Assembly (NCBI GenBank): GCA_022829145.1
Contig: CM040763.1
Span: 13,005,141 to 13,069,140, forward strand
From: Albula goreensis
Taxonomy: Eukaryota > Chordata > Actinopteri > Albuliformes > Albulidae
Direction of reading: 5' to 3'
DNA length: 64,000 nucleotides
Numbering within the stretch: position 1 is the first letter of the stretch; every line of letters begins with the position of its first letter. The translations under genes and the position numbers were made by a program. The notes under the pieces are model-generated. The model was not told where the DNA came from, ran no database searches, and worked only from the letters and a program-made list of their open reading frames with translations. Of the stretch, positions 5,701 through 57,000 are shown piece by piece.

Positions 5701-6214
5701 ATCATCAATACTTTACCTTAGCGTTGTCACTAAACACACACTTTAAGCTTGAAATTAATTTGATAAAACAAAGGAAAAAAAGCAGACCGTTAATGAAACC
5801 AAAGGAGAGATCTTGGTTGGATGCATGCTGTGCTGTGTTCTGTTGTACATACTAAGCAGACGCACAGGTCTATAATCAGACTGGACAGACACCACCCACT
5901 CTTCGCCTCTGAGAGGAGTCTGTGCTGCTGTTCCCCACAGCTGGATTCCCCTGGCATGGCCGTCACAAGGGAAGATTCTTTCATTAGCATTGAGCAGGTG
6001 GCATAGCCAATCAATGTTCATATGGCAGATCAGCACTCACTTGTTTTGCAGGGCTAAATTCAATCCCTCACCAAAGCCTTAATCCGCACAGCCATGACCC
6101 AGTGTACTTGAGCAGAAGTGCTTTGTTTTAAGTGTGATCATTGCAATTCATTCCTAGATGAAGGTTGTTACACCATTATATACTTGTTCTCTTAGAAGAA
6201 TTATATATGTATAT
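2701..6214. other. Gene-free stretch
   Basis: I see no gene, RNA or clear repeat. A slightly GC-richer zone at 5280-6000 gives overlapping open frames on both strands without family resemblance. Confidence 0.55.
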
Positions 6215-15717: not shown

Positions 15718-15805
15718 GCTGTTCAATTCAGTTCAATTCAGGTTTATCTATAATAGAATTTATTTCAACAGAATTGCTACAAAGCAGCTTTACATAAAAC
15801 ATATT
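15718..15805. mobile_element. Short dispersed fish repeat (3' tail type)
   Basis: A short TTCAATTCAG tandem is followed by GGTTTATCTATAATAGAATT and by ATTGCTACAAAGCAGCTTTA. The last motif and the TTCAATTCAATT prefix are typical of a widespread teleost repeat (usually with TATTTATATAGCGC between them). Only a diverged copy remains. Confidence 0.5.
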
Positions 15806-21800: not shown

Positions 21801-21860
21801 TTGTTTTTCAGTCTCAGGATGCACAGAGTCACATCCCACTACACCAAAATCCAACAGACT
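15806..21860. other. Gene-free stretch
   Basis: Apart from the GT repeat at 19760-19942, I recognise nothing. The 150-codon open frame at 17887-18339 has no recognisable motif. The block 19080-19510 is of higher complexity and could be non-coding regulatory sequence. Confidence 0.5.
19760..19942. repeat. Imperfect GT/AT-rich microsatellite
   Basis: About 180 bases of interrupted (TG)n with ATG/GTA insertions. It creates Cys/Val-rich and His/Thr-rich open frames on the two strands that are not genes. Confidence 0.9.
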
Positions 21861-21890
21861 AAGCATGGCACAGTCATCTCTGGGGTTTAT
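21861..21890. repeat. Lone diverged copy of the 41-bp minisatellite unit
   Basis: AAGCATGGCACAGTCATCTC followed by TGGGGTTTAT matches the core of the unit repeated at 23917-24151 at all but about three of 30 positions, 2 kb upstream and in the same orientation. The remaining part of the unit is not recognisable. Confidence 0.6.
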
Positions 21891-23916
21891 TGCTTTGTGC
21901 TCCTCACAGGGCAAAGAGAATGCTGTCCTTGATACTTGATAAAATATGCAGAAATGCCCATTTATTCAAATTGAATAAAATGCACTGTGAAACTCTACTC
22001 ATGTGATGTACATCTGATGGCTGGGTCATACAAACACTGGTGGAGTTAAATTAACACAGAACATTTTTCTTTGTGGAGTAATGTAAACTGGCTTTTAAGG
22101 TTAAACCAAACTCAGTTTGGAATCCATAACCCAGAAAAGACTTTCACGCTGATGTTGAATTTCTCTGTGTTTACAGGAATATCTGAATGCCCTTAAATCC
22201 CTGTTAGACATGCACATGAATCAAGCTCCTTGATTCCAAAGTGTTCTGTGCCTGTCCCCCTTTGAATTGTTACTTCTATTGATTGGGAGACACCTGTCAA
22301 AGCACCTTATGAATAAATGTATGTGAGTCATGTACATATAGCTGAACTTTTTTCTTGCAATTGAACATCTTTGGAGTGATATTAACAACATAAAGTATCC
22401 TGCAGGCAATGTGGAAAATCTGTCTCACAAAAACTACACCATCCTTAAACAACTGGTATCTATAAAAACTGTATGCTTTGAGACTGCTGATTTTTCAGTG
22501 CTCTCAGTAAGACCCACTGCACCACACCTTAAACCTTCATGTTGCTTTGAACCAGCATGCATGTGACTTAATATTAAAAAAGTGTGTCACATTGACTTTG
22601 TGCTGTAAGCTCTGCCTTCTTGGGCCATGTTGTCAACATTTTATAGAATTCCAGAAGTCACATGTCAGAGAGACGTCTCCCAAAGAGACATGCTGAAATT
22701 GCATACGCATGTAACTGGTATTGCTTTGACTGAGGTGCATGCTGTGTGTGCATGTCTGTTCAGGGGTGATAAAAACATAAGAAGCTTCTCAACATTTTTT
22801 TTCTGCAGAATGAGGAACATGGTTCTGTTCCACTCTCAAACACACTGAAATGTTCTTACAGACTGTGAGATAAGACACACTTGGCTTTGCAGAATAAGCT
22901 ATGAGTTCACATCAGGAGGGCAATTCGCTACACTTAAGCTTGGGATCTTCAGAAAAAATATCTAATTAAGCTCCCACTGAAAGCTGAAATGCATTTTCTG
23001 CTAGTTCAGCTTTTATCTGCCACCTTGTCATGCTAACTGTAATACCTCGTGATTGTAAAATGAACGACTTTTAAGGCTTATTCTTTAAATTACTGTGACG
23101 CGCACAAACATTCCGATGAAAACCTCTCCTCTCCCCTCTTTTCTTTTCCCGACACACAATACTGTTCATTTGCAATACATTAATGGATTCCTTATTTGGT
23201 ATTCATATTTCAACAGATGTTCAGACACTATATCAATGATCAAAGAAGAACAGCATACAGCATTCATGCAACTGATTTCCATAGCGTAAACACTTTCAAT
23301 AAATAGTTTTTAATGTGTAGGCCTCTACATATAGATGTGCAGGGAATTTCTTTCCGCAAACAACACATCCTAAAAATGAATGAACAGACACCTGGCTCAT
23401 TATTTCATAATCACACATCTGTAAGATAAAGAAATCAGTACGGACTCTTAAGATGAAATAAGCTTGTGATAACCCCAGCCCTGGTACTGAAGTGTAGAGC
23501 TTGATGAGAGGTCTGTTTTCTGTACTGAGTGTGAAGTTGAAGCAGACAGAAGCAGGCCACAGAAAAGGAACACTCAGCTGCGAACCCACCTGGTTATCTT
23601 CACAAGGCAAATTTTAAGCAGCCCACTCCTCTCCTCCCCTCCCCCCCTCCACCCCACTTCTCCCCCACCTCCACAGGACACTCTCATCAATCCCTCCAGC
23701 ACAAGTTTGCACCCACCCATTCTGCACCCCTCCCTCCCTCTCTCTCTCCTTCTCCCCAGCCTCGCCCAGACGCTGCTCAGGTATTAGGCTTGTAAATGAG
23801 ACTGTGGGGAGCTCCACTGCTATAATTGCTAATTTACAGCGAAGGAATCAACCAAGCAGTGAATCCTACAGGTGAGGGGAATACAAAATGCCTACTATGA
23901 CTCTGTGCCCCTCAGA

Positions 23917-24151
23917 GTCAGCATGGCACACTCATCTGTTGGGTTTATGCCCACATAGTCGGCATGGCACACTCATCTGTGGGGTTTATGCCCACATAGT
24001 CAGCATGGCACACTCGTCTGTGGGGTTTATGCCCACATAGTCAGCATGGCACACTCGTCTGTGGGGTTTATGCCCACATAGTCAGCATGGCACACTCATC
24101 TGTGGGGTTTATGCCCACATAGTCAGCATGGCACACTCATCTGTGGGGTTT
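23917..24151. repeat. 41-bp minisatellite, about 5.7 copies
   Basis: Copies begin at 23917, 23958, 23999, 24040, 24081 and 24122, the last truncated after 30 bases. Each unit starts GTCAGCATGGCACACTC and ends GGGTTTATGCCCACATA. Copies differ by only one or two bases (for example CTCATC against CTCGTC, and GTTGGG against GTGGGG), so the array is recent or homogenised. Confidence 0.95.
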
Positions 24152-27100
24152 TTGACTATTAACCGTGTTCTGATCAGCCTTTTATGAAACAGTGTTAAAG
24201 AGAGGAGGAAAGGTGAAGGCGTTCTGATAGAGACACATACTTTACATCAACTCTTGTTTAAATAATACTTTTTTCAATTTGTTGCTAGAGAACAACAAAG
24301 CCATGATGTTGCCATAAAATTGTTGTAGTTGGACAAATAAATAGCTAAAACTGCCGTATGGCAGTATGTTATACTTTGACCACCTCTCTTTTTCTCTCTG
24401 CTCTCTTACCTTGTATTTTCAGTTCATCCCATTCTCTCATATATATATGCACACACACACACCAGCACAGGTGAGTAATATGTCACATCTACCTCTCTTG
24501 AAATGTTTTTGAGTAAAGAACACTCATTTTCTGCCCTACACTTTCAAGTCACGGATATGAGAAAGAAAATAGTTCCTCTCCTTCACAATTCAAAACTTAA
24601 AATCATCTCTGAGTAGTTCTGTCAACCAGACGTCCAGACAAATAAACACCAATGAAACTCGCAGCTGAGCCTACTTACCAAAACCACAAAATGGCCTGGC
24701 AGCAGCATCATGGTGAAGTTGCATTGTGGTCAGTGAAAGTCAAGTAAAATGTGACATTAGTAAAAATCCACTTTAATTTTGGCCTTGTTTAAGTAATATG
24801 AGTCAGCATATTAATCATAATGAACTGCGCAAAGTGCCTTTCTGTGTGTATGAGAGAGAAAGACAAAGAGAGAGAAAGTTTGTTTGCCTGTGTGTGAAAG
24901 ATAGACAGAGAAAGTGACTGTGTATCTGAGTGTGTGTATGCGGGGCTGAGTTTAGGGTAATCAGGGCCCAACCTTCCTTTGCATCCCCTCCTGCCTTATT
25001 GCAGTCTAAGGCAGTATGAGTCAGTTAAGACTAAATGACTGGCATTTTTGGACAAATGGCACATAAGCATGTGGAAAGACAGGTGAAACATTTCTGTTTC
25101 ATGGCATTTCTGAGGAAACTGACATCTTGCTTCTCTCTGATCTTCATTACTTCAAATTCCAGAGCAGTAACTGCAAATTATTTGAAAACCTAAGAATTAT
25201 GAGGGCAGCGATGTGCAGATTAGTCATAGGTTTTTAAGCTGTTCTGGTTCTCTATTTCAGCAATTAAATGTCCATTATTACCAATGACCATTGATTGAGG
25301 TTACAGTACACACAGACTCTTACCAGAATCCTTAAAAATGCTTCAATAATAAACTCTCATTTTAGCATTGAAGCTCTCCTGGAAGTATCTCCCACTAACA
25401 ATCTGCCATTACACATCCTCAGCTTATTATGCAGCAACTCCTTTCTCTTTGATGTAACTCCAGCGAAATTAGATTAAACAAGCTGACGTGACATTTAAAT
25501 GTTATCTCTTCTTTTATACCCTCACACACTTATACCGAATAATTAAAATAATCTAAATTGCTTTTGATATGCTTTTAATTTTTAATTTCACTGTTTAATA
25601 TTGTAAAGGAAATGTATGCACCATATGAGCTCTTACAGTTTGAGGCTGGCGTCACACTTTGAAAGGGAGATGAAGACTATCTTCAGGAACATATATAAAT
25701 GATTTAGAGAGCGTTTGTAATGAGATGTGTCCTGACTGTGGTTTTTAGATCGTTGTTGTCAATCCTGTCTTTTTTTCCTCTGAAGTTTCCCTTATCAAGC
25801 ACAGTAAAAAAATCATTATCTGCTCAGCTTAGATTCTGATGAGATCCTGAACGCTTCCCACAGCATTAATGTTTAATGGTTTGGCTACATTGGAGGTTCA
25901 ATTTGTTTGTCTGTTTGTTTGTTTGTTTGTTTCTGGGTACTGTTTTTTTCATCATGCCAAATGTTATATTTCCTTTTAAAAAATTCATTAGTCTTCCAGA
26001 ACCACTGCATATTTCAAATTAAGTAGGCTAATTTTAAATATAGCAATCATATTTCAAGATAGATTCAAACTTAAAACTAGATATTCAACTGATGTTTGTC
26101 CATAAGGGTAAATGGGTTATCACAAATTCAATCAAGTATTAAGAAATTAGCCATCATCTGTGATTTGTATTCTAACCAACAGGCCTGTTAATTATTTACA
26201 ACCAAAATGGATTCTGGACAACTACCAAAGATAGGTACGTCCCCTGCTGCTTAACCTCTCGGAGCCTGATTAAACTGTATTTGAGCAGCCATCATCTCTC
26301 CAGTGGTGACTTAAATGGTACAGTAAGCGCAAAAAAGGTTTCTCTCATTTAATTAAAATGGCATTTTTATGAGAACTTGGTGGTATTAGGCCTTGAAAGG
26401 TCATGACTGTCAGAAGACTGATGAATACAGCAGGCCTTATGCCTCAGTCTAAGGCGATGAGACCTGTCTCAGACACATACTCTCAACTGACAGTCCCTCT
26501 AAATGCCCTCTTTTTCATCCAATCTCACATGCCAAGCACTTTGAGGAGTCTCTGCTGAAGGGAACCATGATGGCCAACAACACAGCAACTTTCCCCTTCA
26601 GGGTATAGTGCTGGGGACTTCTCCTATAAGGACAAAAATGAGAATTCTTCCAAATACAAGGTCATCCTGTTGTGTACTAGGCATATGTAATTTTCAATTG
26701 AGACCATAAAAATAAAATTAAGAGCCAATCAGACACACAAGGGAAGTTGCAGCAGTCATATCAGGCAGCGAGAGAGCTGTTCAGAGGATGATCATTGATG
26801 TTTTTTACACGTAGGCACTCATGCACTGCCCTGGGGATTTACATTTCATTATTCATGTGACCTCTTCAGAGTCACATATTAATCTATATCATCCATACAC
26901 CTGCTCATAGTTTTTATGTCTCCTTTTATGATGTAAACATTTCCGCTTTTACATCTTTGTGCCCAAAAAGTCTTGGTATGGTATTATGGCTTGGAATGGT
27001 TTTGCAGCTCTTCTCTAGATGTCAAGGAAAGAAAAATGCCTAATTTTAGTAGAAAGACCAAACAAGAGATGAAAGAAACAATTCACAAAAAAACCAATAG

Positions 27101-29244
27101 AAATTGTGTGGGGATACCTTCATTTCATACATTGCTCAAGGACCAGACCAAGTGCTCTGGTGAGAGCTTTCAGGAGATATTGCATTGTTCAGCTTGCTCT
27201 GAAACATATTAAGTTGATGAAAGCTGCTTGGCAACAGCAAGACACCTTCACAATGGTGGGGATTAGAGCTGTTTTTTTTCTCAGTCAACAGTCATTTCAA
27301 GGTGCTGTCTTCTTGAGAAATTGAAAGGCAAACAGTAAACATTTACAGCTCGACACAACCCATTTCCTCAAAGAGCAGATAAAGGTTGGATTCACAGGCA
27401 AACATTTGAACTTCTGTATAGCCATTACTGCACATCTACATTTTTGCATTGCTGAAAATTAATCAGTGAAAGCTGTCTGTTTTTCTGCAAGTTAATGCTG
27501 AAGTCATTTCAAAGGGATTTTATTTTTTCTGCTATCACCACCTAGCTTTGCAAGGATGATGACAATGTATTTACATGCTTATGAGAAAATAACTGTGTTA
27601 CAGGAATCAAAGGCCGCATAGCTTAACTATACACAGAGTAAACTCATAGTTTATTAAGTTCTGCACAAAATAAGGCACTATGGCAGGATTCCTCAAAGAT
27701 TACCATGTTACTTCAGTTGAGACAATAAACAAATATTGAACTCTTATAATAATGCTGAAGAACAGACTATATCAAAATACAAGCGGTGATACAGGTCAAG
27801 TGTGAAAAGCAGTGCAACTTGCTGTTATTTACATCATCGGCCTTCTAACATTAGTCCTGGTGTGAACCGGATTGACTGCAGGCATAGGTTTGTCATGCCT
27901 TTACACAGATGGATAACTAGATAATTCAGACAGCAGTCTTTGATAGCACACCTTTCAGGGTCGACACTTTTTCACAGGATAACTACCATGAAAGACGGTG
28001 ACTCCAGAAAGATGCTGAGTTCCAGCACTCTAGTGGTAGCAGTGATGTGTCTGAAGTATGGTAAGGTATAACAGCATCAAAAAAGATCAATCATAGACTT
28101 CAAAGTTCATCTCTGAGAAACATATTATCATTATGGTATTGTTTAGTGCTCGGCTTTGTGCAGTCCTCATGAATATGGCCGTGTGTCACAGCTAGTGAGA
28201 ACACTGGCAGTGCACTCATGCAGTGGAGGACTAATATACAGATCTCCTGTTTTGACAAAGGATGTTGTTGACATTCGGTTGCAAGGTTTTGAAATTAAGA
28301 GAAAGGCACAAAAATAAGGCTTTAAAAAATGCTCATGAGTATTTTTCCTAGAAACTGCAATACATTTAAATCTAACATGATCTTGGAATTGAAGGAAAAC
28401 ATATGCCAACATCTTAAAAATCACATAAACCTAACATTTTGTTTACATAATTAAATATAAAAGCATCTTTGTTGCCTATTGCAGAAATGTCATACATTGG
28501 CTGCATGATTACTAATGAGCTATACCAACTGAGCAAACAGTACAAACATTTATTTAAAGCTGTACTGTGTATTAGCAATGTAGTTTGATGCATCCATATT
28601 GATTGCAGAACACTAAGATAGAAAACTACAGACAATGACATGCAGAACTGTGCTGAAGGAGGTGGAAACAATAACAATGAAAAAACTCAGATTTCTAAAC
28701 AATCCGATGGCAGTGGGCTAGGCTTGGTAGAAATAACTTTTTACTGTAGTCTATTTAGAACCATGCCAGATTGTCTCTTTTGAAAACCGTTTTCCAAAAT
28801 GCTTAATTAAATCAATCTTGGGGATTGTACATATACTTGATTGAACAGAATCCATTTTTATTGAAAGACATATTGTGGTTGCTGCATTTATTTCACTTTG
28901 GGCAAGTACACTAGCAATTTCCTTATCCTGAAGGGTGTGTTTTTGAACGCAAACAAGTGACATGGTCACAATTTGATCACTTATGACCTTATGATTGGTA
29001 GCATTTGAGTCTGCTCTCATCAAACTAACTTCGTAGCATGAATGTTTCTAGATGAAATCAGAGGGGAGAGAAACATGATTGATAAAGGAGTAGCCTATAC
29101 CACATACCCTTCAAGAGACTGAGTCTGTTTGATTCAATTGTGTTTGATGATACCAGTTTGCAGGAGTAACATGGTATAGCTGTACACAAAAACGTTTATA
29201 AAACCATTCAGAACACATTACATTCAGAAGGTAACCATTCATGT
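24152..29244. other. Gene-free stretch
   Basis: AT-rich DNA with short simple repeats: TA/CA at about 24440-24462, a purine-rich AGAGAGAA stretch at about 24850-24880, and TTTG at 25902. No supportable gene or RNA. Confidence 0.55.
25902..25932. repeat. (TTTG)n microsatellite
   Basis: TTTG units with one TCTG interruption. Confidence 0.9.
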
Positions 29245-29480
29245 ACATGCAGTGACCGCCATAATGTTTGGGACAGCTTCAAATGCTTTTATTTATTTGG
29301 CTCTGTACTGCATTATTTCAGATTTGTAATCAAAAACTCACATGTGGTTAATGTTCTCAGCTTTTATTAGAGGGTATTTTCATATATACCTGGTGAAAGA
29401 TATATGAACTCACCAAATGCCTCATGATAATAACCTTTATGCTGCTTGATTAAAAATCTTTCAGATTTAACTAACGATCA
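29245..29480. mobile_element. Fragment of a fish Tc1/mariner-type DNA transposon
   Basis: The phrases CATAATGTTTGGGACA, TTTGGCTCTGTACT, ATTTCAGATTTGTAAT and ATTAGAGGGTATTTTCATA match what I remember of abundant terminal or internal sequences of fish Tc1-like elements. No transposase frame is present. Edges are approximate. Confidence 0.5.
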
Positions 29481-29829
29481 ACATAAATCATTATGACACA
29501 GATGTGATCAAAGGGAGTTCAACCACCACTATAATCCCAATATAACCTCCGTATAAAGCATACGTACTGCACGGATCATAAATTAATCACTGTGTACTTC
29601 ATTGTTACCTTGTTATAAATCAAATGAACTACTTAATTAGGTTTGCTATTTTCATGTGCAGCGTTGATTTCACATTGTCATCACCACTGAAAGTCCATAT
29701 TACAGTCTCCTAGTCCATATTACTGAACCTCACGCATGTTCCCAGGGACGTTAGTTTTGCTCGAACCCGGCAAGTCAGCATTAACCATCAATTTGGTGTA
29801 TAGAAGGAAGTAGGAGCGCAGCATAAATA

Positions 29830-30035
29830 AATAAATGCTTTGCATTATTCATTTGCCTAGCAGACGTTCATAGCTCACATCTTATACATTATCCAGTTAA
29901 ATAGCTGCATATTTACTGAAGTAATTCAGGTTAAGTACTTTGCTCAAGGGTAGTGCAGTGATGCCCCACCCAAAACTTGGAACATTTAACCCTCAGGTCA
30001 CAAGTACAGATTCCTGACCTCATCTGCACAAACCT
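29830..30035. mobile_element. Degenerate dispersed repeat (SINE or MITE-like)
   Basis: Contains GTTAAGTACTTTGCTCAAGG, then GTGCAGTGATGCCCCACCC and AACCCTCAGGTCACAAGTAC. This order is common in dispersed repeats of many ray-finned fishes (AAGTACCTTGCTCAAGGGTA and so on). It is diverged and its class is uncertain. Confidence 0.45.
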
Positions 30036-30443
30036 GTCTGTCTCCATGGTAACAGACACTGGGCACAAAGCTGCAATCTCAGGGGAGTTAGTCGAATTTC
30101 AGATTAACAGTTTTTTATATGATATAATTCATCTGAGTGAGTTGAGTGTATTTATCCATCTACATTTTAAAATCAATCCGTTCTCTTCTTGTATAAGTTT
30201 GATTGAAGCGACACTATATTAAAGCTATATTGTTAAAGGGCTGTCTGTAAAATCCATGGTCATACATCATGTTGTGTGATTAATGTGCTGTATGTGTTAG
30301 TATTACCGAAGGTTATATACAGGTACAGTATTTCCTCATATTGTTGCAGAGGTTGCATAACACAAATGTATATTTTCATTAATATTTTTTTGATAATTAA
30401 CATTTTAATGATTAACAGTTCTGTTTTATCTTGTTCTTATTGA

Positions 30444-30468
30444 TAACAATAACAATAACAATAACTAT
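30444..30468. repeat. (AATAAC)n short tandem repeat
   Basis: About four copies of ATAACA (GATAACAATAACAATAACAA and onward). Confidence 0.85.
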
Positions 30469-31153
30469 GAGCATCGAATTCTGTGGTGGTTAATATCACA
30501 TAAAGCACTGACAATAACATGGTAATGATCCATGTGGTTAAAGAATCACAGGCTGGCAAAAGTGCAGACCACATCTCCAAGGCTGATAATGTCATATATT
30601 GATGAGCACAGTGAATGAATAATGACTGAATTTTCTTTTTTTATGGTGTTTGATTAGCTGAAACCTGAAATTCTCCTTTCACGCATAGAAAAAAACTGCC
30701 TGCAGACAGTAAAGAAAAACACTGAAACACTGTTCATCATGGACTTTAAAATGTATTGTGGAGGTTTAACAGTATAATGAATGACTTGACTGCACTTCAT
30801 TTATCACAGAGTTTCAAACAGTCCAGTCTCTTCCATTTCCTCAAGAGAGGCACGTTGTTCCAGTGTCTGAGAAATGAAAAAAATAAATTTGACAGGTACC
30901 ATATGACAAGCTGTAAGACAAAAGGGATAAACTTTAAGGACAGAGTCTGACAGCACGGGAAAAACTTTTTGAACGATTTGACTAATTCTTCATCGAAAAC
31001 TGGCTTTTGAAAAAGTTTAATTGTATTCTGGCCTGCCATCTCAGATTAAATTCGAAACAGATTCGAGAGGCTCTCACAGACAGCCAAAATCAAAAGACAC
31101 AACTGACATACAGCCATGGAAGGATGCTCACAGAAGGCTTTATAACTAAGTGC

Positions 31154-31199
<46 letters not shown>
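31154..31199. repeat. (TA)n(CA)n microsatellite
   Basis: ATATATATA passes directly into about 18 CA units. Confidence 0.95.
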
Positions 31200-31201
<2 letters not shown>

Positions 31202-31452
31202 CATTCATTAGACAGATTGGTGCAGATCACCGGGGGACCAATCAAAGAGCACCAGCCTCTTCCTGTGCCTGTCATTTTCTGAGGAAGCACAACGGGACTT
31301 TATTTTACTTTTACAGAACAGCAGCCACATTTTATGATAATCACTAATAATCTAAATGTTTGTGCATGTTTGCGAAATAGAAATCTCAAATGGAGCATTC
31401 CCCAGAATGCTTCAGTGAGCAGATCAGGTTGACAATTCAGTGGTAGACTATT

Positions 31453-31497
31453 ACACACACACACAGACAAATACACACACACACACACACACACACA
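31453..31497. repeat. (CA)n microsatellite, interrupted
   Basis: Two CA blocks (31453-31466 and 31472-31497) are separated by GACAAAT. It lies 250 bases from the previous CA array. Confidence 0.93.
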
Positions 31498-34400
31498 AAA
31501 TATACAAAAATATACTTAACACTAAATATACAAAAGATCAATGAATTTACTTTCAGTGTGATTACAAATTGTTTTCTGGTTTATTGCAAACCACTGCCCT
31601 CAACATCATTTGCTAAATTCAGAATCAACAGTCTATTACGAAAAAAAATCTCTGCAATAGTGCTGTGCCTTATAGTTAAAGTGACATAATTTGTATGGCA
31701 AAAGCCAATTATCATATAAAGTAGGAAATACTTAATGAGCAAACATTTCTGACCTGCATCTGTGCACTCATTATGTAGCACAGATCAGAGAGCAGCAGGA
31801 TCGATCTGTAACATGTGAAATACTACCTACTGTACTGTACATGGAAAGGAAAGAATAGGTTTTTGGCAGAGTTCTCCTTTGAGGTTGCATCGGGAGGTAA
31901 AAATACAGGGGGGTTAGTGGTGATAAATGTGATGTTGAGAGCGAAATAAGGTCAGACCAGATGAGACGGAGAGAGAGAGAAATAAAACTCTGGGGTGAAG
32001 ACCATGGGGAACGGGTCCTGGCTACAGCATGTGCGCATTAATTATGGCCAGCAACAGATGTACTCTAATGAAAAAAATATATATTTAAACAAAGATGTCT
32101 ACAGTCACTGTGGCAGAACAGCTGGAGGTAGATATGTCTTAGTCAAACAAAATCCATTTAAGCTTTTTCACATCTGGTTTGTTTGGACACGTTAATTAAG
32201 CAGCCGAAGCAGCTTTGCATTTCATGTAATATCACATGGATATATCAGACCAAAAACATATGATTTGAAAAATACTTTCATCCTAAAATTGTAAAGGAAA
32301 ATAATTGATTTTAAAGAAAAGACTTTGATTTGAGCATATTTAAGACAGCAATTTTAACTATTGTATATACAACTTTAACTTATGGTTTTAGTTTTATTGC
32401 AAAATTTTGAAAATGGTTGCAGAATGCAGAGCCTTCCTCCCCAGAGGAGATTATACAGTGTAGCATTATGTCATTTTAATTCTCACAGTTTATTGAAACT
32501 ATCAATGTCAGTATGAGAAAGCACACAGTTTAAGCCACTTGTTTTCCCAAGGATATCCGCACTGCCATTCCTCAGACCAGAGCTATTATCTCTCAAGTAG
32601 ATACGATACACAGATCATAATAAAAACAAATCTGAATTGTCTAACATATTGTGTAAAGTTGAATCACAACATTGCTCCATTTGACAGCCATAACAGTGAT
32701 TTAGTAATCAGAGCAGTTCCTCAAATGCATTTCTTTGAAACATGCATAGTGTTTTTCTGACATCGTTTGAATCAGGCCTTGCTGAATATGCTTCTAGTTT
32801 GCCTTGAAGGAAAAATATAGTTTCATCAGCAGCACATTAAATTCTAACTTATATCTGCAAAAAAATGTTGCACAGACAGGAGTATCTAATTCCCACAGTT
32901 AATTGCCATAGCAAATCCAGCTGTCTTGGCATCTGAATAACACTATAATATAATGATTTTCTTTGGATGAAAGGAAGATGTGTGGAGTTTGAAAGAAGTT
33001 TTATCATTTATGTAGAACACTCTACCAGCAGAAAACTTGGAAATATGTTGAGTATAGGTGTACGTTTCTTCAGGGGATCAAGCCAGTGAGCTATATCTCA
33101 GAACATAATTAAAAGCTTTACATGAAGAGTAATGAGATGCTGAATTGAGTTATTACATTATTTATTGATATATTGATAAAAGTATGCACGTTGTGCGAAA
33201 CCGAATGGGGGTGTCATTTGCCTAGCAGAAGCATGGGGTCTCTCAGGTATAGGGGTGCTATCAATTAATATAAAATGTTGAAAATATCTGCAAAACATCT
33301 AAACCGTCTGTGACTGTATACCTTGCTCTTTGAGCTTGCTTTTTTCAATTTTGAATTATTGTGATTCCTTCAGGAAGGTCATTCATTCTAGGATACCATT
33401 CCATTGAAGTTTTAAAAAAGTACAACTTTCAATGCTTTGATTACTCTTGGCTCTGCTTTAATAAAGATGTCAGCATGTCACTGACAGTTTCTACATTACA
33501 TAGTCCTAGTCAGCATGTAGCAGAAGGCTGTTCCCTCTGTGGAAAAATAACATTTCTGAAATCTAAACCGAAGACAAGAAGGCCAACAAATGTACCTGAA
33601 CTAGCTTCACCAGGCTCATGGCGTAGTCAATTAAAATGTACAATACAAATTTTGTTCATTTTTTTAAATATAAAAGTCACATCCTTTTAAAATAAAATTA
33701 AGCTTATTAGATGCAGCAGGTTCTCTATTCATTTCCATCATCAGTAAGAGTAGGAGTAGGTATTACACACTGCCCTATTCAATATAAATTAATAACATGA
33801 ATTCTAAATATACTGTACATCCAAGTTCATACATCACATTACAGTGAAATAGACCATACAGCTATAGCTTTAAGTATATGATTTCATGTATTATTTTAAT
33901 GGAATTATTTTTAGGGCTCTAGAATTGATCAACAGCCTAAGACCAGGATCTGTCAAACAAATTTTTCCAAGAAATATGAAGAGAGGATGTTCCCTAAAAA
34001 CTCCAAACTATTGTTCTTGTTACTATAGACTAACCTTGAAGTCCTTGAAAGTGCTCCTTTTAGTCTTACTGTGACATTACTTCGTTTGCCACTTGAGAGT
34101 TTGAGTGCTTGTGGAGTAGCGCACTACATATGTAGTGTAGGCAGCCAGTGGAGATAAGAGGCTGCAGAGCCTATGCCAGCATGATCACATGATCATGGGT
34201 CACACACTGCACATCCATCCTCAGTGATAAAGATGGAGCTGCAAGCTTATCTGTTGGCCTGGCACAAGCAGTGTTTGTGTACAGGCACAAACAGTACTTC
34301 AACTAATTTCACATATTTCTCCCGAGATGCAGTACATAGAACAGAACCTACTTTTTTTGCTTCTCTTTTTGCTCCTCAAAAAAGCTAGCTCCATTTTGAC

Positions 34401-35176
34401 CCTGGCCCACTATGCACTATCACAATCACATAGCCAACAACAATGTGCTGAAAAGGACAGCACAGAAATTCTGATTTAAGCAAGTTAGGAGGGCAAAAAT
34501 TAAGATATTCACACTATAATGACAACACAAAAATAGTGCTATTTAGATAAGGAGATCACAGAAGATGCCCTAAGCATTTGTACCTGTAACCAGTCAGGAT
34601 AAATGCATAGGCGTTTATGAAAAAAATATGAGAGCCAAGATTCAAACAAATGAATTTAGTCGCTTTAAAGGAATATGATATTCAATCAAAGCACAACAAA
34701 CCCATCCAGATTGGTCAGGCAATGTATCTCATTTAAGTCTAGGTGACTCACCATGTTGCTCTCCCCGAGTATGAGAATATATGGCCATTCAGAAGGTGAA
34801 GTAAGAGGTTCTGGCCTAATGAAAACAAGGAAATAGCTCTTGTAGTAAAAAGATGCTTTTATGCTAATGGTATTTGTTCAAGTCGTAATGTTTACATCAG
34901 TGTGATGTTTACATCACTGAACCCCAGAATTAGGAAGATGTCACGCCTTGGGAAAATACATTATTGCAACTTCAAAATGGTGTTCTAGCCTTGTGGTAAT
35001 TAAATTTGCAAATAAAAATATGCAAATGAATGAATGAATCAATGCACACTTACATAATATATAGATACATACACAAAATAATAATTCAAAAAACTACATT
35101 TTCCTTGTATCACATATTTTAGTCATACATGGTGAATATGTACAGTATTGTGGATGCACAGTAATTCATTTTACCA

Positions 35177-35213
35177 CAATAATACTCATGAATGTGAATC
35201 ATGAGTATTATTG
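35177..35213. repeat. Perfect 15-bp inverted repeat (hairpin) with 7-base loop
   Basis: The left arm CAATAATACTCATGA (35177-35191) and right arm TCATGAGTATTATTG (35199-35213) are exact reverse complements around the loop ATGTGAA. The adjacent sequence (CACTGATCTT twice, from about 35219) is a short direct repeat. Confidence 0.95.
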
Positions 35214-36824
35214 AGAGTCACTGATCTTCACTGATCTTCTCATTTATCATTTCTAGCAGTAAAATTCAACTGAGATCTTTTTTTGATCACATTGCATATG
35301 CCCTTAATAATGAGACCAAATACATCTGACAGAGCAAACCCTGGCTGATCTATTTAAATTAAGACATGTTTTATGGATTCTTCAGCCTTACCTGTAATCA
35401 GGATGCAAGCAGACAGAATGGTACTGTATATAAACAGAGATCAGTAGGGTGCTCTTTTCAAAGAGACACAGCCCCAAGCACCCCTTTTGCTTGCTCATGC
35501 CCACAGTCATCCCGGCGGCACATCCACACCCCCAGACATGCAGGATTCACAGAGCCTGGGCTAATAGAATGGAGGGCTCCAGCTCAGGTTACAGCTCTCA
35601 AGAGAGACCATTCATTGCCAGTACAATTCCCTGCATTATATTTCACAGCTACGGTCCTAATTCAAGTGCAATCCAATCGCAATGCAATTAATTACAGATG
35701 GCCAATCATGCAACTGTGAATAATACATCAGTGACCCTGATATACACTGAATAGGAATAAATTATGTGGTGTTTTCTAAGGGGCCCATAAGAGGGAAAAA
35801 AATGCAAAGTACAGAAAACAGAGACACAGGCATTCCTGACAGGAGATGCTGTACACAGATTTACAGCATTCATCTGTCTCACCTGAAAACACAGGGAGCA
35901 GCCTATCTGATCTCTGTAAGGCTATCTATCTGCAGGGAAAGCCATTTGTGCAGAATTTCAATGGCAGGACCATAAATTGGGTAATAGACACACTTGTACA
36001 CAAATGTTGAAACCATGCTTTTATTAGCCTGGTCACTTAAGCCATTGCTTGTTAAAGTCTTAAAACACCTAATAGTAACATCTGCATGTATAATAGCAAT
36101 TCATTGTCCTGAACAAAGCAGCTTGTCTGAAATGCAATATCACAGTAAATTTCAACCACAGATATGTGTGCTCCAAATTCTCACTCAAGTCATCCACAGA
36201 TATACCAGGTTTTCCAACAAAGTTCAAATATATTTGTGAGGGATACTAACAATAGAATTTGCAGAGCCTCCATAAATATTTCTCAGAGTTCAACTTATCT
36301 CAGGAAAATTGAGCTTGGCTTCTCAGGAAGTTTCATTTCCATTGGATATCCAGGTTACAGACAGCCAGTTAGCCAGTGAGATAGCAGAACAGTTTAAAGG
36401 ACAGTTAGCAGGTCAATCAGTCTTTATAATCTTGGGCTCAACTTCAAGACCACGAATGAACAATATAAAGCCACAAACAATGCAAAATTTCTTGGTGATT
36501 GCCCTTCCCTGATGCTCTCTGTATATATGTGCTCTTTGATCAGCATTCATTTTCATCACTCAGTCACAAAACCTGAAATATCAAACACACTATGGGCAGT
36601 AACAGTAGCCAAATAACTGTGTCTGAATTCTTAAAGAAATCCACTTCCTTCCTGTATCTGGGGTGTACCATTGAACCATCTAACAAACCCAGGTTGGCTG
36701 ACAGTAATGAAGCATAATTATTTCAGAATAATGAAGTACCTTTTATTGCCGGTAAATTAACTGAAGAAAAGGCATATTGAAATGTCTGCTGCATTAGTTG
36801 CAGTGCACATTCAGTCAGCAAGTA

Positions 36825-36840
36825 ATGAGTCATGACTCAT
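36825..36840. promoter_or_regulatory. 16-bp palindrome of two abutting AP-1-type sites
   Basis: ATGAGTCATGACTCAT is its own reverse complement and contains TGAGTCA and TGACTCA directly adjoining. Each is a consensus AP-1/bZIP site. Function is inferred from the motif only. Confidence 0.4.
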
Positions 36841-37464
36841 GACAAGGAAGGAACATACTGATTAGAAATACACAGATACTAATCATTAAAGTGCACATCA
36901 ATTAATGAACATGCTTATTAGCATGTAATCACAATTTTTATAGATAGTCAATAATTTTTTTGTCCTTTCACATTGAAGTACATTTTGTGTTTGTAAGTGA
37001 CATAAATTAAGCAAAAATGTAAATCCATCTGAATTTTTGTTTGGGCCCAGTTCCATTCCAGCCTGTATTTCCTAGCAACACATCCCAGTGACTTAAAATA
37101 CAGTCACAATGTCCATTACCAATAAACAGGACATATGCTACATTTTTTAAAATCCTTAAAAAATATCCACAACTGTGTAAATAACACACTGTAAGGGCAA
37201 GTTGAAATATTTCAAACCAACTTTTCATGGAATGAGAATCATTCAAGCATTCATTCCAAGAATCAGTACAGCATTCTGTTGTCACTGAACTCCCACAAAC
37301 AACACAATCATACAAATATATCTTAAGAATAAAACCTATTTCCTCATCCTCAGTTCTTTGCCTTAGATTTATGAAACAGCAACAACAAATAAAGAAACAA
37401 ACATTCCAGGAACTCAAGCAGGAAGAAATAAAATGGCTGTAATAAACAGAATCCCATCTCTTAC

Positions 37465-37529
37465 CTGAATAGGCTTTTTCATCAGAAAGAGCAGATTTCC
37501 TTTTAGTCGACACCATCTCTCTTTACTGT
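37465..37529 (-). CDS. Candidate minus-strand exon continuing the PH-like domain
   Basis: On the - strand, a strong pyrimidine tract (TTTTCTTCCCCTTTTCTGC) leads to an acceptor TTGTAG ending at 37530. A near-perfect donor (TTCAG followed by GTAAGA) starts at 37464. Spliced from the exon at 41373, the 65 bases read in phase as DSKERWCRLKGNLLFLMKK plus PIQ, ending on a codon boundary. RWCRLKGNLLF is a typical PH-domain beta2-beta3 pattern. In another frame the exon has its own ATG in good context (37516; MVSTKRKSALSDEK), but that frame has no recognisable relative. I could not identify the following exon to the left. Confidence 0.45.
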
Positions 37530-40500
37530 CTACAAGCATGCAGAAAAGGGGAAGAAAACAGAGATGTCTAAGGAGCAAAGCTACTGAATGTCGATTTTTG
37601 TTTATTTCAGTAGATTCAGTGTGGAGCTCTTGCCTGGGATCACAGGGATGATGCGGGAGGAAAGCACGTTGGTTTTAAAGGTCAGAGCAGGGGGGGAAAA
37701 TCATTAAAGATTTCTGCTCTGGCCAGCAGCTACATGAGTGTGACAGGCAGCTAAATGCCAGATAACTTCCCAGAATGTTCCGGATTCCCCGCAGCCCAAA
37801 GATGTGGTGACTGCAGCACAAAACTCCACTTTATTCTCATTGGCTCTGGCCTCTCTGCTGAGAAGAGTAAATCAGTTTCTTAGGCTGGGGGGAAAAGAAG
37901 CACTACTTGAAATCTGTGGGGAGAAATGGGAAGCAAACCTCCAATATTACCCCTCGGAGAACATGATTTTACACAGAGGACATACAAATGCACAGCTGCT
38001 ATGCAATGGGTGTAATCTCATCAGTTAAAATATGGTAACATTACAATAAGATTATTCTGAACGCTGACATTAGGAGGGATGCGTGGATGAATTTCCTCCT
38101 AAGGTTTACTTGAATCTATCTTTCTTCTGCAAAAGGAGCTTCATTCACACAGAGGTTATGTCTGCATTAAAACTGGACCCTTGATGTGGAACCCAAATTC
38201 TTGTTTTATGATTTTTAAAGGCCCCTAGATTCCATGTTAAAAAGTAAGTCTTACAAGGCAGTTTGGACATAAATAAATACATAAAGTATGTAAGACTGCA
38301 GACACATACACAAGAAACATAACCACTGCCTTGGTATAAGCTTAATATCGAAAAAATAAATACTTTTACTGTAGCTCTTTTTTAAACACCTCCTGACATT
38401 TTTTCTGAAAGTTTTAGTAATAACTTTTATTTGGACATACACATTAAATTATGCTTGAAAAGTAAATTATTAATGATTTTTCAGAGAGCATGCCATAATT
38501 TTAAAGGATTACATCTGGTATGGAATCACAGCAAGACACATTCACTAACATCATGTGTGTGATCTAGAGTTGCGACAGAAAAAAGCACTAAAGAATTTCG
38601 AACTTTACAGGATTTACCATCAAATTTTGTGTCAAACAAGCAAATAAGCTCTTATATGAACATTTTCACATGAACAAGGGTGAAAGCGCTAAAACTGGAA
38701 GGGGGTCTTGTACATGGGTGCATTAATAGCTTCAGTGAATCTGCAGAAAGGCTAGAAATGTAAATGGAGGGCATTAAGGCTTATGTTTTGGATTCAGCAT
38801 ATACTTTATGTCCTTACTATTCCACACACATACATTTTTCATTTTGGTCTCTAAGTGATATGTACTGCAAACTACCCCCACATATTTGTATTGGATCATT
38901 TTGCTAAATATGTATTTGCCAGCCTGTGCATTTGAATATTCTGCCATGTAGTGATACTCATGCCTGGTCCAGTAGAGCCACATAATCAACTGGTGTTTGT
39001 TCTTAAACTCTCAACACCATGTTGCAAGGTTCTTGAGGAGCTCAAGTTTCAGAAAGAGTGGCATAATGGAAAAAACAATATACCTATTTGTGTACAATAA
39101 GCAAGTGCTTTTATATGTTTTGATAAGTGCAAGGACTGATTTGTTTATTAACAGTGCACTTCAAATTGAGATGGATGTTCAGATGCACCTTCTTCATCAG
39201 TCTACTGCTGCTCCCTTTTCAAACTTCCATCCATGACAACATGTCTTTTGACAGTGCAAGACCCATTCTTTGCTAATGATTTGTACTTACCGTTCTGCCT
39301 GTGTTTTCCCTCAAGCCAGTGCTTTTTTGGTCAATAGCTTTAAGCCTCTCTGAAATGGAGAGATATACATTGTTCCTGCTTTGAAATTTTATATTAGTAT
39401 TTATAATTTCCTTTTTAGGGGGTTAAGGACAGATAGTATTTTTGCATTTGTGAACTACAGATGCAAGTCATTCTTTCAGCATATGCCAACATTAGTCATA
39501 TCCTCTCTTCATTTTGTTGTATCATAATTTGGGATGTAAATGCAATGTCTAGTGGTGAGTTATCAATGTTTTTGTGTGTTACATGTTATATCCCCAAAGT
39601 GGCATTCCCAATATACCTGCCCAAGTGCTTTAACATCTTCCCTTTATTTAGGATGGAACAGACTGGCATACATATTCTGAGGCACATGTAGCCAGCCATC
39701 ATTTCTTTTCACTCTGCAGCTGTACTGCAGGACTGTACAACTAATGTGGCAGAGAATGATTGCAGAAGTAAAATTGGCACCGAAACTGTCCTTCCCTGGG
39801 TGATGCTGTGGCCAACTCCCTGCGGGCTCCCTGGCCACAGTTCACAAGGTCAAGATTCAGTACAAACTGCAACGTGCATGTGTTTGGGCGTGTGTCTGTG
39901 TGTGTGGGTATGTGCTGGCACAGAGGTATGGTGTTTGTGTTGAGAAAGAGCATAATCACACAACATTAGTAGTCTGAGTGGCCTCACACACAACCACAAA
40001 AAGCTTTGATGGAAAATGAACTTTCATAGGTAAGAGACGTTGTAATTTAATGCCGAAGGCTCTGCAGGTCTAACTGAACGTGTTGTAGTCAGGCCCATGA
40101 AGTGCCATATTGGTTGGCTCAATCAATAAGAATGGCAGAGAAATCATAGATGACTCAATCACTGAAGTGAGCCTCATACACCACACTTTTCACTGATTTA
40201 CTTTGAAGGGTAATCCACAAAGATCAAACCTGCTTTAGAGAAAAGCATTACTATGCAAATGCAGTGCATTGTAATCAAACCAAATCCTCTGTACCTTACA
40301 TCTAAAACAGGGCCAATTTTCCTGGTCATTTTCAAATATACTTTTGCAGGCCTAATGCAACTGACATAAATCAATATGCATCCTTTAAAAATAACCAAAA
40401 CATGTATTTCTGGAAAATCTAATTAAATAAAATGTTTCCAGGGGTTGGTGTTTGTGTTTTTTATATGTGAGAAAATGTATTTCAGAAGCCTCAGAATGTA

Positions 40501-41372
40501 TTTACAAAGGAAAGCTTTTTACTTCCAGATAAATATTATTTTTTGCAGCACCTCCACCCATACGAATAAAACATAGCAGTACCTGGGCAGCTGCTGTCAG
40601 AAATAATCTAGCTTCGCACAATAAATTATCCTTGTTTTTGGCCACTGCATTACACTGTCTGCCTTGTGATAAATAATGTTCAAAGTCAAGTTTTCAAGGT
40701 GTGGGTACTTCAAACACAAAGTTTTAACTTCAGATACATGATGTAATGCACTGTAAATTATAAATAATAGATGTGTGTGTGTTAAATATGTAAACATTTA
40801 AATTAAAAAAGGTGTGTGTGGGTGTTTGTATTTATACACATACTATAATAAAAGCACACTTAAATAGATTTTCATATCTCTCTCTTCTGACAGAGCAGCC
40901 AGCAAGTAACAATTTCATCTCCTGTCATTGTGTCCTGGCAAAACACAAACTAGCATTACTAAATTATATGTGTGTTATATTATAGTCATTTTCCTTGAAA
41001 TCACTGAGAATGCAGGCATTTTACTTTTACAATCAGTAAATTCTAACAATTTTGTTTTGCCTTTTACATTCATGTTTTTAACTGTTGTTGTGTCTGATGT
41101 CTTGACATATTCATGACCCACTTTTTTATTTCAAAGCGCACACACGCATTTTGTCTCAGCAGGAAAAAGAGATATGGCCCTTGGCCATACACAGTACCTC
41201 AGAGCTCAATCCATTCATCCTGCACCACTAAACTCCCACCGTATTTAGCAAAGTGATTGGCCTGTTTATCAGAACATATTTTCCACTGTTTGTCCATTGC
41301 TCACTGCTGGATGGCTCTTCCCTTTCTCGATAAGCATCCAATGCTTCACATTGTCTTGTAAAACAACTATAC
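37530..41372. other. Intron between the two PH-like candidate exons, or intergenic
   Basis: No other exon is supported. The 37600-38030 block is GC-richer and complex, a candidate regulatory element. The rest is AT-rich. Confidence 0.45.
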
Positions 41373-41521
41373 CTTGAGCCTTCTCTGAATGGCTGGTAGA
41401 CAGTCGATTCACCCATAGCTTTCCTTCTTTGTCAAAGCTTCCAGGAGGTCCTCTGGAAACAGCAGCAAGCTGTGCAGCATTGAATCTCATCCTCCTCTTC
41501 TTCACAGTACAATGAGCTCCA
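41373..41521 (-). CDS. Candidate minus-strand exon encoding the start of a PH-like domain
   Basis: Read on the - strand, a good acceptor (CTGCGTTTCAG) ends at 41522 and a donor (CAAG followed by GTATAG) begins at 41372, giving a 149-base exon. An ATG at 41490 (A at -3) opens a frame beginning MRFNAAQLAAVSRG and continuing to FDKEGKLWVNRLS, 39 codons plus one base. KEGKLWVNRL resembles the first beta strand of PH domains, and MRFN/MRYN openings occur in some small PH proteins such as PLEKHJ1. The frame joins in phase to the candidate exon at 37529-37465. The exon lies on the strand and side where INPP4B sits relative to USP38 in mammals, so a 5' exon of inpp4b is possible but unproven. No transcript evidence is available here. 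Confidence 0.45.
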
Positions 41522-53348: not shown

Positions 53349-54080
53349 ATGCGGTTTCACATCCACACTGCACCGCTGCTGTGCTGTAGACTTTCGCCAT
53401 GGACAAGATTCTGGAGGCCCTGGTGAGCTCGTCTCACTCTGTACCTGTGAAGAAGGCCATTGTGAAGAAGGTGGTGGAGGCTGCTGAGAAGGATGTGACC
53501 GAGGAGCAGTGCCAAGCTCTCTTCAGCCTCACCGCCCGCCTCATCCTCCTTGGAGAGGATGCCTTCCAGAAGCAGGTGGGCTACCAGGTGCTGGAGGCAT
53601 ACGCCCGCTACCACCGCTCTGAGTACGAGCGCTTCTGCAGCAAGGACTTCATAACGGGCCTCCTGCAGCAGGGCTATGGCCCACTGGACAGGAAGGACCC
53701 AGCCATCATTGACTACATCCACAGCTGCCTCCGGCTACTCATCAGCTGCCCTGCTGTGCTGGAGATCTTCGTGGTGATCCAGATGGAGGTGCTGCGGATG
53801 GTGTGCGAGCGGCCGGAGCCCGTGTTGTGCGCCCGGATCAGCACCATGCTTTCAGACTTTGTGCAGTGCATCCCCAGGGACAAGTCTGCTGCCCTTTTCT
53901 GCCAGCAGCTGGTCCGGACTATCGGGTACTTCCAGTGCGCCGCCACACGGGAGCAGGAGCTGCGCGAGTACGTCTCTCAGGTGACCAAAGTGGGCGCTTT
54001 GCTCCAGAACATCTGGAAGGCGGAACCTGCCACACTGTTGCCCTCCCTTCAGGAGGTCTTTGCCATCATTTCTTCCACAG
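53349..54080 (+). CDS. usp38: usp38 coding exon 1 (with 50 bases of 5' UTR)
   Basis: The acceptor is at 53348 and coding starts at 53399. It encodes residues 1-227 plus one base of codon 228: the conserved N-terminal helical region with motifs LEAYARYHR, LDRKD, CERPEP, FCQQLVRTIG and LQNIWKAEPATLLPSLQEVFA. The donor is CACAG followed by GTGAGT at 54081. Codon choice is strongly G/C-ending, in contrast to the AT-rich flanks. Confidence 0.95.
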
Positions 54081-57000
54081 GTGAGTCTTTGTCTTCATAG
54101 GACGTTTGGGTAAAAATAGTAGTTCTAGTACATTATGAAAAAGAGAATACAGAGGATTCAAAAAGGGCTCCTCTGGGGTATGCTGGATGACACCGTTTAG
54201 AAAAAAATAAATCTGTGCCACTTAGTCTGCCTCACAGTCTGTAACCAAACCCTGGTGTGATATTCCTCACTTCATCACATAAGAGCACATCCTCTGGTTA
54301 ATTGAGTGCCTGTAGTCTGCATGCTGTAGCTACAAAGCATTCGCTTCATCAGCACAAACTACATTTCCCAACACACTGTCAGTTCAGAGGGATGCTGACT
54401 GTCCCATGCATCATCTGAAACAGTTGTAGCTTTTTTCTGCATGCTGCCTCTTTTCACCATGCAGTCTGCTGGCAGAGGTGAGGCCCCTTTAGAGGGGACT
54501 GATTTGTTTGTGGAGCTGGTGCAGGCACTCTGTCAACCAGAGGAGTGTGTCTCGTGTAAAAGAAAAAAAAAAGGGAACTCCCGGGACCCCTCCCCCTGGT
54601 GACAGCATTGCCAATTGCAGGCTGCCAGCCTCACCAAGCTCTGGAATGCTCTGGATTTGAATTTGGAACATTGTGCAAGTCACCCAACTGAGAACAAATG
54701 CTTTAGGTGGCAGCCCCATTCTATTTTAATTTGACTGCAACAGAATTGTGACAAAAAAAATAGTAAAACTACTGACTAGTTTCTGTATTGTGAGCAAGGT
54801 ATAAAAGAAATTATATGTTTTATTTAATTGGCCTTTTATAAGCTTTTGGCATTTTTCTCTGATATGTTTCATTCTGATGTTTGCATGTCATTTGAAAATG
54901 AATTTTGTCACCAGACATCCAGAACTGGTGGATATATTACAATGTGCTCTCAAGACGCAACAGATCACTGTGTCTGCAATAACAACTTCTCCTTCATTGG
55001 TTGTTTTAAGCATGCTGTGATATCAAAACGTCTCTCTCGTAGACTGTTGCTCCAGTGCTTTTGGTCAGAGTTTTGTTTGAAATAATAAACTTATCTCTGA
55101 TCTTATCTCTGTTTGTGGAAAATTACATCCCATTATGCCATTTAATATTTTTTCCAAGTCACAGGGTCCAGTTATTGGAGTGAGAGGGCTTCCATGTAAT
55201 GTTTTAATTGTACCTGTCTATTGTTAATTGGCTGATGTCAGCAAATAAGTACAAAAGCTATAGAATGTTTATGACATCCTTACAAAGTCATTTTTCACAA
55301 ATCTTAATCATAGTTATACTCTTAACAAGGTATATAGGTAAAGTGTACATACTCTTTTTTTCCCCAGATATAGACATTCTGGAAAAACCTTCAATTGAAA
55401 ACAAACGGTCCTTAGAAAAATGTTTTTATGTGTAACATCACTATGTTCAGTTGCTCATTATTCTGTAATAATTGTATGATAACAATATTTGAATATATTT
55501 TACAGCTGACATCCAGATATATTTTTTCCTCAAAGTCTGAATCACATTTTTAAATCTGTATCATTATTTCTTGCAATCATTATTTATCATAATTCAGGGA
55601 TGGAATTTCTCCTGACTAATCAGGGTGTGCCAATTTATTTTCAGGCTCAACCACATTCAGAGGACTTGGGAATGATATAAGAGCAAACATGAAGCTTTTT
55701 CTCTCTTTCACAGCTGTTAGCAGGAGAGGAAGTCTAGCAAGCCACATAAAAGTGGCTCCAGCAGTATTTATGGTCAGAACATGAGTATTTCCTGTTCAAT
55801 CAGGAACAGTCATATTGCTGATAACTCCAGTGGTGCTCTTGGCATGCGTTAAGCTGTCGAGCTTGTTGAAATAATAACCTTTTTTGGCATCCTACAATGT
55901 TTCTCCCTTGTTGTGTTCTTTACAGACCCTTCATTTGATCCTTCCATTGCACTAGCGAGTCTGGTTCAGCACATACCATTGCAGATGATCACGGTTCTCA
56001 TCAAGAGCCTCACCACTGACCAGAATGTAAAAGATGCCTGTATGACTCAGGCGCTTTGCAGGTGATCTTTCCCCTTTTATTTAAGACTTCTGTAATGGTC
56101 AGAAAAATGAGCATAATTAACTAAAGCTGTTTTTTATGTAAAATGTTACATTTGCCAACCATTGCGCATGCCTTTTGTTTTACCTTTTCAACACAAGCCA
56201 AAAAGATAAAATAGTGCCTGTTTTTGTGTGTACATGCCCAGCCTAGTAACAAACTGATGGATAATTTTATGTGAATTTGTTGTCTTGTTTTTTCTGTTGT
56301 CTGCTCACTGCTGATGAGCAGTGGAGAGAGTATTGATTTTGGTGTTGCATGATGGGTTTGTGTTATAACAGAAACAGTTTGCTGCCCGCTGAATGACCAC
56401 CCTGCCTCATTATTTAATTTGCTCCCTCCTTCAGGATGATTGACTGGCTGTCTTGGCCTCTGGCGCAGTACGTGGACACCTGGGTAATCGCTCTGCTGAA
56501 GGGACTGGCAGCCGTACAGAAGTTCACCATTCTCATAGATGTCACCCTCCTCAAAATTGAACTGGTGCGTACACCCAGGGGAAACGGACAGAGTCACGGA
56601 CGCCGTCTCAGGAAATATTGCAGCTACGATAACCGCTGATTGCTGGCTGAGTTCAGCGCACTCCACGGGGAATGGTGTTCTTGGCGTTTTGGATGTTATT
56701 GCGCAAATAAATGATAATATATCCCTTTCGTGATGTGAATTGCAGCCTGGTGATTTTGCAGCCAGGTCACTCAGCAGAGCTGCTCAAGAGAGGCATGAGA
56801 ACACATCTTCAGCAAATGGGATTGGGTCTGACGTCTGTTATTGCTGACGATAGTTTGGTCTGTGGGCCTGTGAGTCATTTAATTTGCTCTCACATATCAT
56901 CTCTGCGCAGAGCAGCAGTAGCCCACCTGGCCCTGTGCACTTGTGTTTGTTAAGGCAGCTCTGTGTTTGGGAAGTAAGCTATGAGTGCAGCTCATGGACC

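What the first reader, a model, noticed from the sequence alone, without database searches (positions are those of the whole stretch)
37465..41521. Two hidden minus-strand exons that splice into the start of a PH domain
Seen: exon-like segments 41521-41373 and 37529-37465 each have acceptor and donor signals. The junction phase (one base plus two) is exactly right, and the joined frame gives MRFNAAQLAAVSRG, then KEGKLWVNRL, then DSKERWCRLKGNLLFLMKK. Known: PH domains open with a K-x-G-x-L-x strand followed by R-W-x-x-L-x-G-x-L-x-x-F; PLEKHJ1-type proteins start MRYN/MRFN. Inferred: a leftward gene begins here. In mammals the opposite-strand neighbour of USP38 is INPP4B, whose commonly described form starts with a C2 domain, not a PH domain. 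If these exons belong to inpp4b, they would give it a PH-bearing N-terminus. The exons are too short for ordinary ORF finding, so they are easily missed.
Basis: partly seen in the sequence, partly recalled or inferred. Interest (0 to 1): 0.78.

Follow-up and report, generated by a model that had tools for sequence, protein, structure and literature searches.

The report
PH-domain start exons of fish inpp4b
Two short exons in a fish genome are the beginning of the lipid phosphatase gene inpp4b and add a PH domain, a fold that often binds membranes, that usual descriptions of the protein leave out, although gene models of other vertebrates already show it.

Summary
The exons at 41490-41373 (coding part) and 37529-37465, minus strand, join in phase (G|AC) to a 61-aa peptide. 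It matches the N-termini of INPP4B gene models: Conger 77%, E 5.7e-22; 47 of 50 rows cover 93-100% of it. Shuffled windows reach 26.9 bits against 37.0-57.8 for the real window.

The window's own genome gives the link. inpp4b lies on the same contig and strand. After a 66.5-kb intron comes exon 3, then exon 4, completing the PH domain, and exons 5-9 with the C2 domain; all nine join in phase without a stop. In this joined stretch Pfam finds PH (33.8 bits, cut-off 25.1) and C2 (24.5, cut-off 22). The two window exons alone give no Pfam hit.

The kind is not new: automated models from sharks to birds already carry this N-terminus. Reviews of which I read passages put the C2 domain first. A recalled human INPP4B start aligns to a methionine just behind the PH domain of emu, so mammals may have lost the PH exons; that is not shown. 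No transcript data were available.

The parts
41373..41490 (-). inpp4b coding exon 1: Met1 to first base of codon 40 (118 nt; MRFNAAQ...SEKAQ + G), N-terminal helix and PH strand 1
   Evidence: donor gtatag (weak)
41491..41521 (-). possible 5' UTR part of exon 1, behind a candidate acceptor (gcgtttcag) at 41522
   Evidence: sequence only; not tested by transcripts
37530..41372 (-). intron 1, 3843 bp, phase 1, GT-AG
37465..37529 (-). inpp4b coding exon 2 (65 nt; DSKERWCRLKGNLLFLMKKPIQ), PH strands 2 and 3; ends in phase 0
   Evidence: acceptor ttgtag, donor gtaaga
1..37464 (-). right-hand part of intron 2 (66,532 bp in all; exon 3 lies outside the window, 29 kb beyond its left end on contig C23 of the same genome)
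53399..61738 (+). USP38 gene, head to head with inpp4b (likely ATG at 53399; Usp38-like_N and UCH domains in ORFs of this stretch; true 3' end not determined); supports inpp4b synteny

Best explanation
The two segments are coding exons 1 and 2 of inpp4b (type II inositol 3,4-bisphosphate 4-phosphatase). They encode the N-terminal helix and strands 1-3 of a PH domain; exons 3 and 4, outside the window, encode the rest, and a C2 domain and the C-X5-R phosphatase follow. SHOWN by sequence: gene identity, strand, phase, collinearity, PH and C2 matches. SHOWN by prediction on a relative (Conger): PH fold. INFERRED: the exons are transcribed and spliced as drawn; the PH domain helps the C2 domain bring the enzyme to membranes carrying 3-phosphoinositides, so that it removes PI(3,4)P2 there; forms starting at other first exons or at Met56 would lack half of the PH domain and would be expected to bind membranes less.
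Against: No transcript data could be searched. The two window exons alone give no Pfam hit and no PDB sequence hit. Donor 1 is weak (GTATAG). K/R at position 42 is kept in only 11 of 18 rows, and the strand 1-2 loop is long, so lipid binding is not certain. Of 128 relative models, 66 do not hold exon 1, so the PH form may be a minor isoform in places or the exon is often missed. The relatives are mostly automated predictions. The AlphaFold model is weak overall (mean pLDDT 51.6; 58-86 over blocks 1-120). A review passage says INPP4B, presumably mammalian and so without PH, is found at early endosomes as well as in the cytosol (PMC7730566), so the PH domain is not needed for all membrane targeting. 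The last coding exon of this fish's gene was not resolved.
Confidence: 0.88

Rival explanations
1. The exons are the start of inpp4b, but the PH domain is not a lipid binder; it serves as a protein-protein or autoinhibitory module.
For: K/R at position 42 is lost in 7 of 18 rows; the strand 1-2 loop looks longer than in classic lipid-binding PH domains (comparison recalled). A shared fold shows no function (note).
Against: K/R21, R29, R44 and R47 are kept in 18 of 18 rows; the chains aligned by fold include the lipid binders DAPP1 and TAPP1.
Confidence: 0.3
2. A separate short PH protein (PLEKHJ1-type) starts here, unrelated to inpp4b.
Against: All 50 rows are full-length type II 4-phosphatases by name, though the padded query admitted only long proteins; exons 3-9 continue in phase into the C2 domain on the same strand; the PH query finds all four of its exons only at this locus.
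Confidence: 0.01
3. A chance pair of splice-like open segments.
For: AG, GT and short open frames are common; donor 1 is weak.
Against: 37.0-57.8 bits against a maximum of 26.9 in 1100 shuffled pairs; homologous junctions; collinear gene.
Confidence: 0.005
4. A decayed remnant: the exons are still legible but the fish's inpp4b now starts at a downstream first exon, as in the Aldrovandia model.
For: Aldrovandia (P0066; 67 of 97 identical in the PH region it has) is annotated without exons 1-2; intron 2 is 66.5 kb.
Against: Both exons are open, keep 19 of 19 invariant columns and have GT/AG sites; Conger and Anguilla models include them.
Confidence: 0.06

Closest known systems
INPP4B, type II inositol 3,4-bisphosphate 4-phosphatase, long predicted isoforms (Conger conger P0001, Anguilla rostrata P0052, Lepisosteus P0002, Acipenser P0003)
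   Same: Same PH start and same order PH-C2-phosphatase; PH region identity 102 of 140 (Conger), 96 of 140 (gar), 100 of 137 (sturgeon), 90 of 140 (Anguilla).
   Different: Another species; whether this fish's own copy is annotated with these exons is not known from my calls; its final exon is not resolved here.
INPP4B as described in reviews (PMC3248162, PMC6563779, PMC5301276; passages read)
   Same: C2 domain and phosphatase domain.
   Different: Described as having an N-terminal C2 domain; no PH domain of INPP4B in the passages. The recalled human sequence starts at emu residue 131, behind the PH domain.
INPP4A
   Same: Same family; two INPP4-like loci in this genome on C5 and C21, taken as inpp4a by inference.
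   Different: Matches to INPP4B at these loci begin only at residue 209; the PH query finds nothing there at E<=10.
Short PH proteins of the sesquipedalian/PHETA kind (name recalled; locus C4:45351242-45351553)
   Same: PH domain with a similar start and an R-W-x-x-L-K-G-N motif; Pfam PH 66.4 bits.
   Different: 31% identity, one long ORF, only PH families found in it.

Membership tests
INPP4B | Sequence continuity with the C2 domain and phosphatase on one strand | tested here: met
   Conger INPP4B exons in order on C23 minus; nine phase-consistent exons; C2 24.5 bits against 22
INPP4B | C-X5-R catalytic motif | tested here: met
   CKSAKDR in the spliced model
INPP4B | Type II rather than type I (INPP4A) | tested here: met
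   C23 locus 67-96% to Conger INPP4B; C5 and C21 loci 40-70%; no tree was built. USP38 next door (that USP38 neighbours INPP4B in mammals is recalled)
INPP4B | PI(3,4)P2 4-phosphatase activity | not testable with these tools
   needs enzyme assay
PH domain (PF00169) | Pfam score above gathering cut-off, whole domain (exons 1-4) | tested here: met
   35.5 bits against 25.1; 33.8 in the 312-aa stretch
PH domain (PF00169) | Pfam score above cut-off, the two window exons alone | tested here: not met
   0 families for the 61-mer; it is only half a domain
PH domain (PF00169) | Seven-strand barrel capped by a C-terminal helix | tested here: met
   [not shown]
PH domain (PF00169) | Phosphoinositide binding (only some PH domains have it) | not testable with these tools
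   basic residues conserved in part
PLEKHJ1-type protein | Short single-domain PH protein (recalled) | tested here: not met
   the gene continues into C2 and phosphatase exons

The most novel reading that the evidence does not exclude
Ancestral jawed-vertebrate INPP4B was a PH-C2-phosphatase with two membrane-binding modules. Mammals lost the PH exons and now start translation at a methionine that is internal in other vertebrates, just behind the PH helix, so mammalian work describes a truncated enzyme that leans more on recruiters. Other lineages make the PH domain optional through alternative first exons.
Probability: 0.45. Interest if true: 0.6.

Novelty: new member of a known kind. Interest (0 to 1): 0.38.

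Why it matters
INPP4B is studied in cancer as a phosphatase that ends PI(3,4)P2 signalling (PMC3248162, PMC7730566; passages). If many jawed vertebrates carry an extra PH domain in front of the C2 domain, targeting can be tested by comparing natural PH and PH-less forms, and comparisons of fish or bird INPP4B with the human enzyme need to allow for the missing domain. For annotation, exon 1 is short and far from the rest: 47 of 128 relative models fetched begin at the MKNK methionine in exon 2, which may mean that exon 1 was missed or that another start is used.

Tried and rejected
Motif scan for the next exon inside the window found nothing convincing; the next exon was later found outside it. 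tblastn with recalled human INPP4A/B N-termini gave only noise in the window. Pfam and PDB sequence searches with the 61-mer alone gave nothing. A first spliced alignment without the exon 3 and exon 5 regions forced false micro-exons there and at the C-terminus; it was replaced for exons 1-9, and the C-terminal end is left unresolved. One script failed on a parsing error and was corrected. I checked whether the window holds the odd first exon of the Aldrovandia model; no convincing match. Rfam: 0 matches. The PLEKHJ1-type and chance readings were rejected as told above.

Literature: searches for INPP4B with PH-domain or isoform terms listed no title on a PH domain in INPP4B; (with 'lizard') returned 0 papers. 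I read passages only, of PMC3248162, PMC6563779, PMC5301276, PMC7730566 and PMC6400549; the mouse gene paper (Ferron and Vacher 2006) was seen only as a reference. Hit lists were capped and most papers unread, so a description in print is not excluded.

Absence of mammal, zebrafish and percomorph names is weak evidence: one search lists 120 of 133 rows, a row names only one or two members of a 90% cluster (one cluster holds 498), and candidates need shared 5-residue words.

Full report
WHAT WAS CHECKED. On the minus strand the ATG is at 41490 and exon 1 ends at 41373 before GTATAG; exon 2 is 37529-37465, between ttgtag and GTAAGA. Alone it gives no Pfam family and no PDB sequence match.

WHAT IT IS. 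Padded with X so that full-length proteins became candidates, the peptide hit 50 proteins among 75 candidates. Conger conger type II 4-phosphatase: 77%, E 5.7e-22; gar 70%; sturgeon 72%; birds 60-63%; lizards 51-56%. Of the 50 rows, 47 cover 93-100% of the peptide; three weak ones (E 2.3-9.6, birds) cover 31-38%. The gar PH region (residues 1-130) reached 66 of 189 candidates at E<=0.01, adding bowfin, Anguilla, mormyrids, salmonids, sharks and rays. The emu region 1-150 gave 133 of 556 candidates at E<=10, 120 listed.

NOT CHANCE. Eleven relatives' first 61 residues gave best hits of 37.0-57.8 bits in the window, all on exon 1 or exon 2; 1100 pairs against 100 block-shuffled windows reached at most 26.9. 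Of 128 relatives fetched, 62 hold exon 1 from its start. Of the other 66, nine change over at the exon 1|2 junction and eight at exon 2|3 (six and five species; points read by eye), two begin inside exon 1 and 47 at MKNK in exon 2. The window peptide keeps 19 of 19 columns that are invariant among 18 relatives aligned without it.

THE REST OF THE GENE. The window is C23:13005141-13069140 of a 932-Mb genome. Conger INPP4B matches it exon by exon on C23, minus strand, in order, from exon 1 at 13046630 to 12840905; weaker INPP4-like loci on C5 and C21 match from residue 209 on. Exon 3 was found at 12976072-12975988 by tblastn (E 3.6e-9 with the Aldrovandia piece) and by a splice-bounded scan: score 94 (81 and 75 with alternative acceptors of the same exon), the next unrelated candidate 13, among 503. 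Exon 5 was found likewise. Exons 1-9 join in phase to 936 nt without a stop; introns are 3843, 66532, 3031, 10765, 19562, 4461, 31175 and 18587 bp. The C-terminal part carries CKSAKDR; its last exon was not resolved. A genome search with the four-exon PH peptide finds the four exons of this locus, a PH protein on C4 (31%, E 5.3e-6) and three weaker rows (E 0.02-5.4).

HOW IT LIKELY WORKS (inferred). The PH domain adds a second membrane-binding element in front of the C2 domain of a PI(3,4)P2 4-phosphatase. INPP4B is described as diffusely cytoplasmic (PMC6563779, passage), and INPP4B was recruited by induced dimerisation in an assay that depletes PI(3,4)P2 at the plasma membrane (PMC6400549, passages). 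A PH-bearing form might reach such membranes by itself. Against this, another review passage places INPP4B at early endosomes too (PMC7730566), so a PH domain is not needed for all targeting. I have no binding or localisation data.

KNOWN OR NEW. Automated models in sharks, ray-finned fishes, lizards and birds already have this N-terminus; 41 of the 50 rows carry a precomputed PH domain. The reviews whose passages I read give INPP4B an N-terminal C2 domain and mention no PH domain in it. The recalled human N-terminus aligns from its Met1 to emu residue 131, behind the PH helix. Loss in mammals is therefore a reasonable but untested reading; no mammal name was printed, with the limits told under Tried and rejected.

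VERDICT. Ordinary as a gene, moderately interesting as a domain missing from the usual description.

Noticed in passing
window 53399-61738, + strand: USP38 lies head to head with inpp4b, 11.9 kb between the two likely start codons; ORFs carry Usp38-like_N and UCH domains.
   Followed up: partly
window 23909-24151: Tandem array of a 41-bp unit, 5.9 copies, 96% matches, inside inpp4b intron 2.
   Followed up: no
window 2379-2697: GT-rich degenerate tandem arrays with overlapping periods (18, 37, 77, 101) in intron 2.
   Followed up: no
P0066 (Aldrovandia affinis model): Annotated INPP4B lacks exons 1-2 and begins with an unrelated start of about 18 residues before exon 3: a missed pair of exons or an alternative first exon.
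   Followed up: partly
47 of the models P0074-P0128 (birds, lizards, turtles): Start at the Met of exon 2 (MKNK...), cutting the PH domain in half; the two turtle models listed (P0126, P0127) also look divergent in the PH region.
   Followed up: partly
L028 (C4:45350900-45352300): Another PH protein in one long ORF (sesquipedalian/PHETA-like by recall), Pfam PH 66.4 bits.
   Followed up: partly
[not shown]
   Followed up: no
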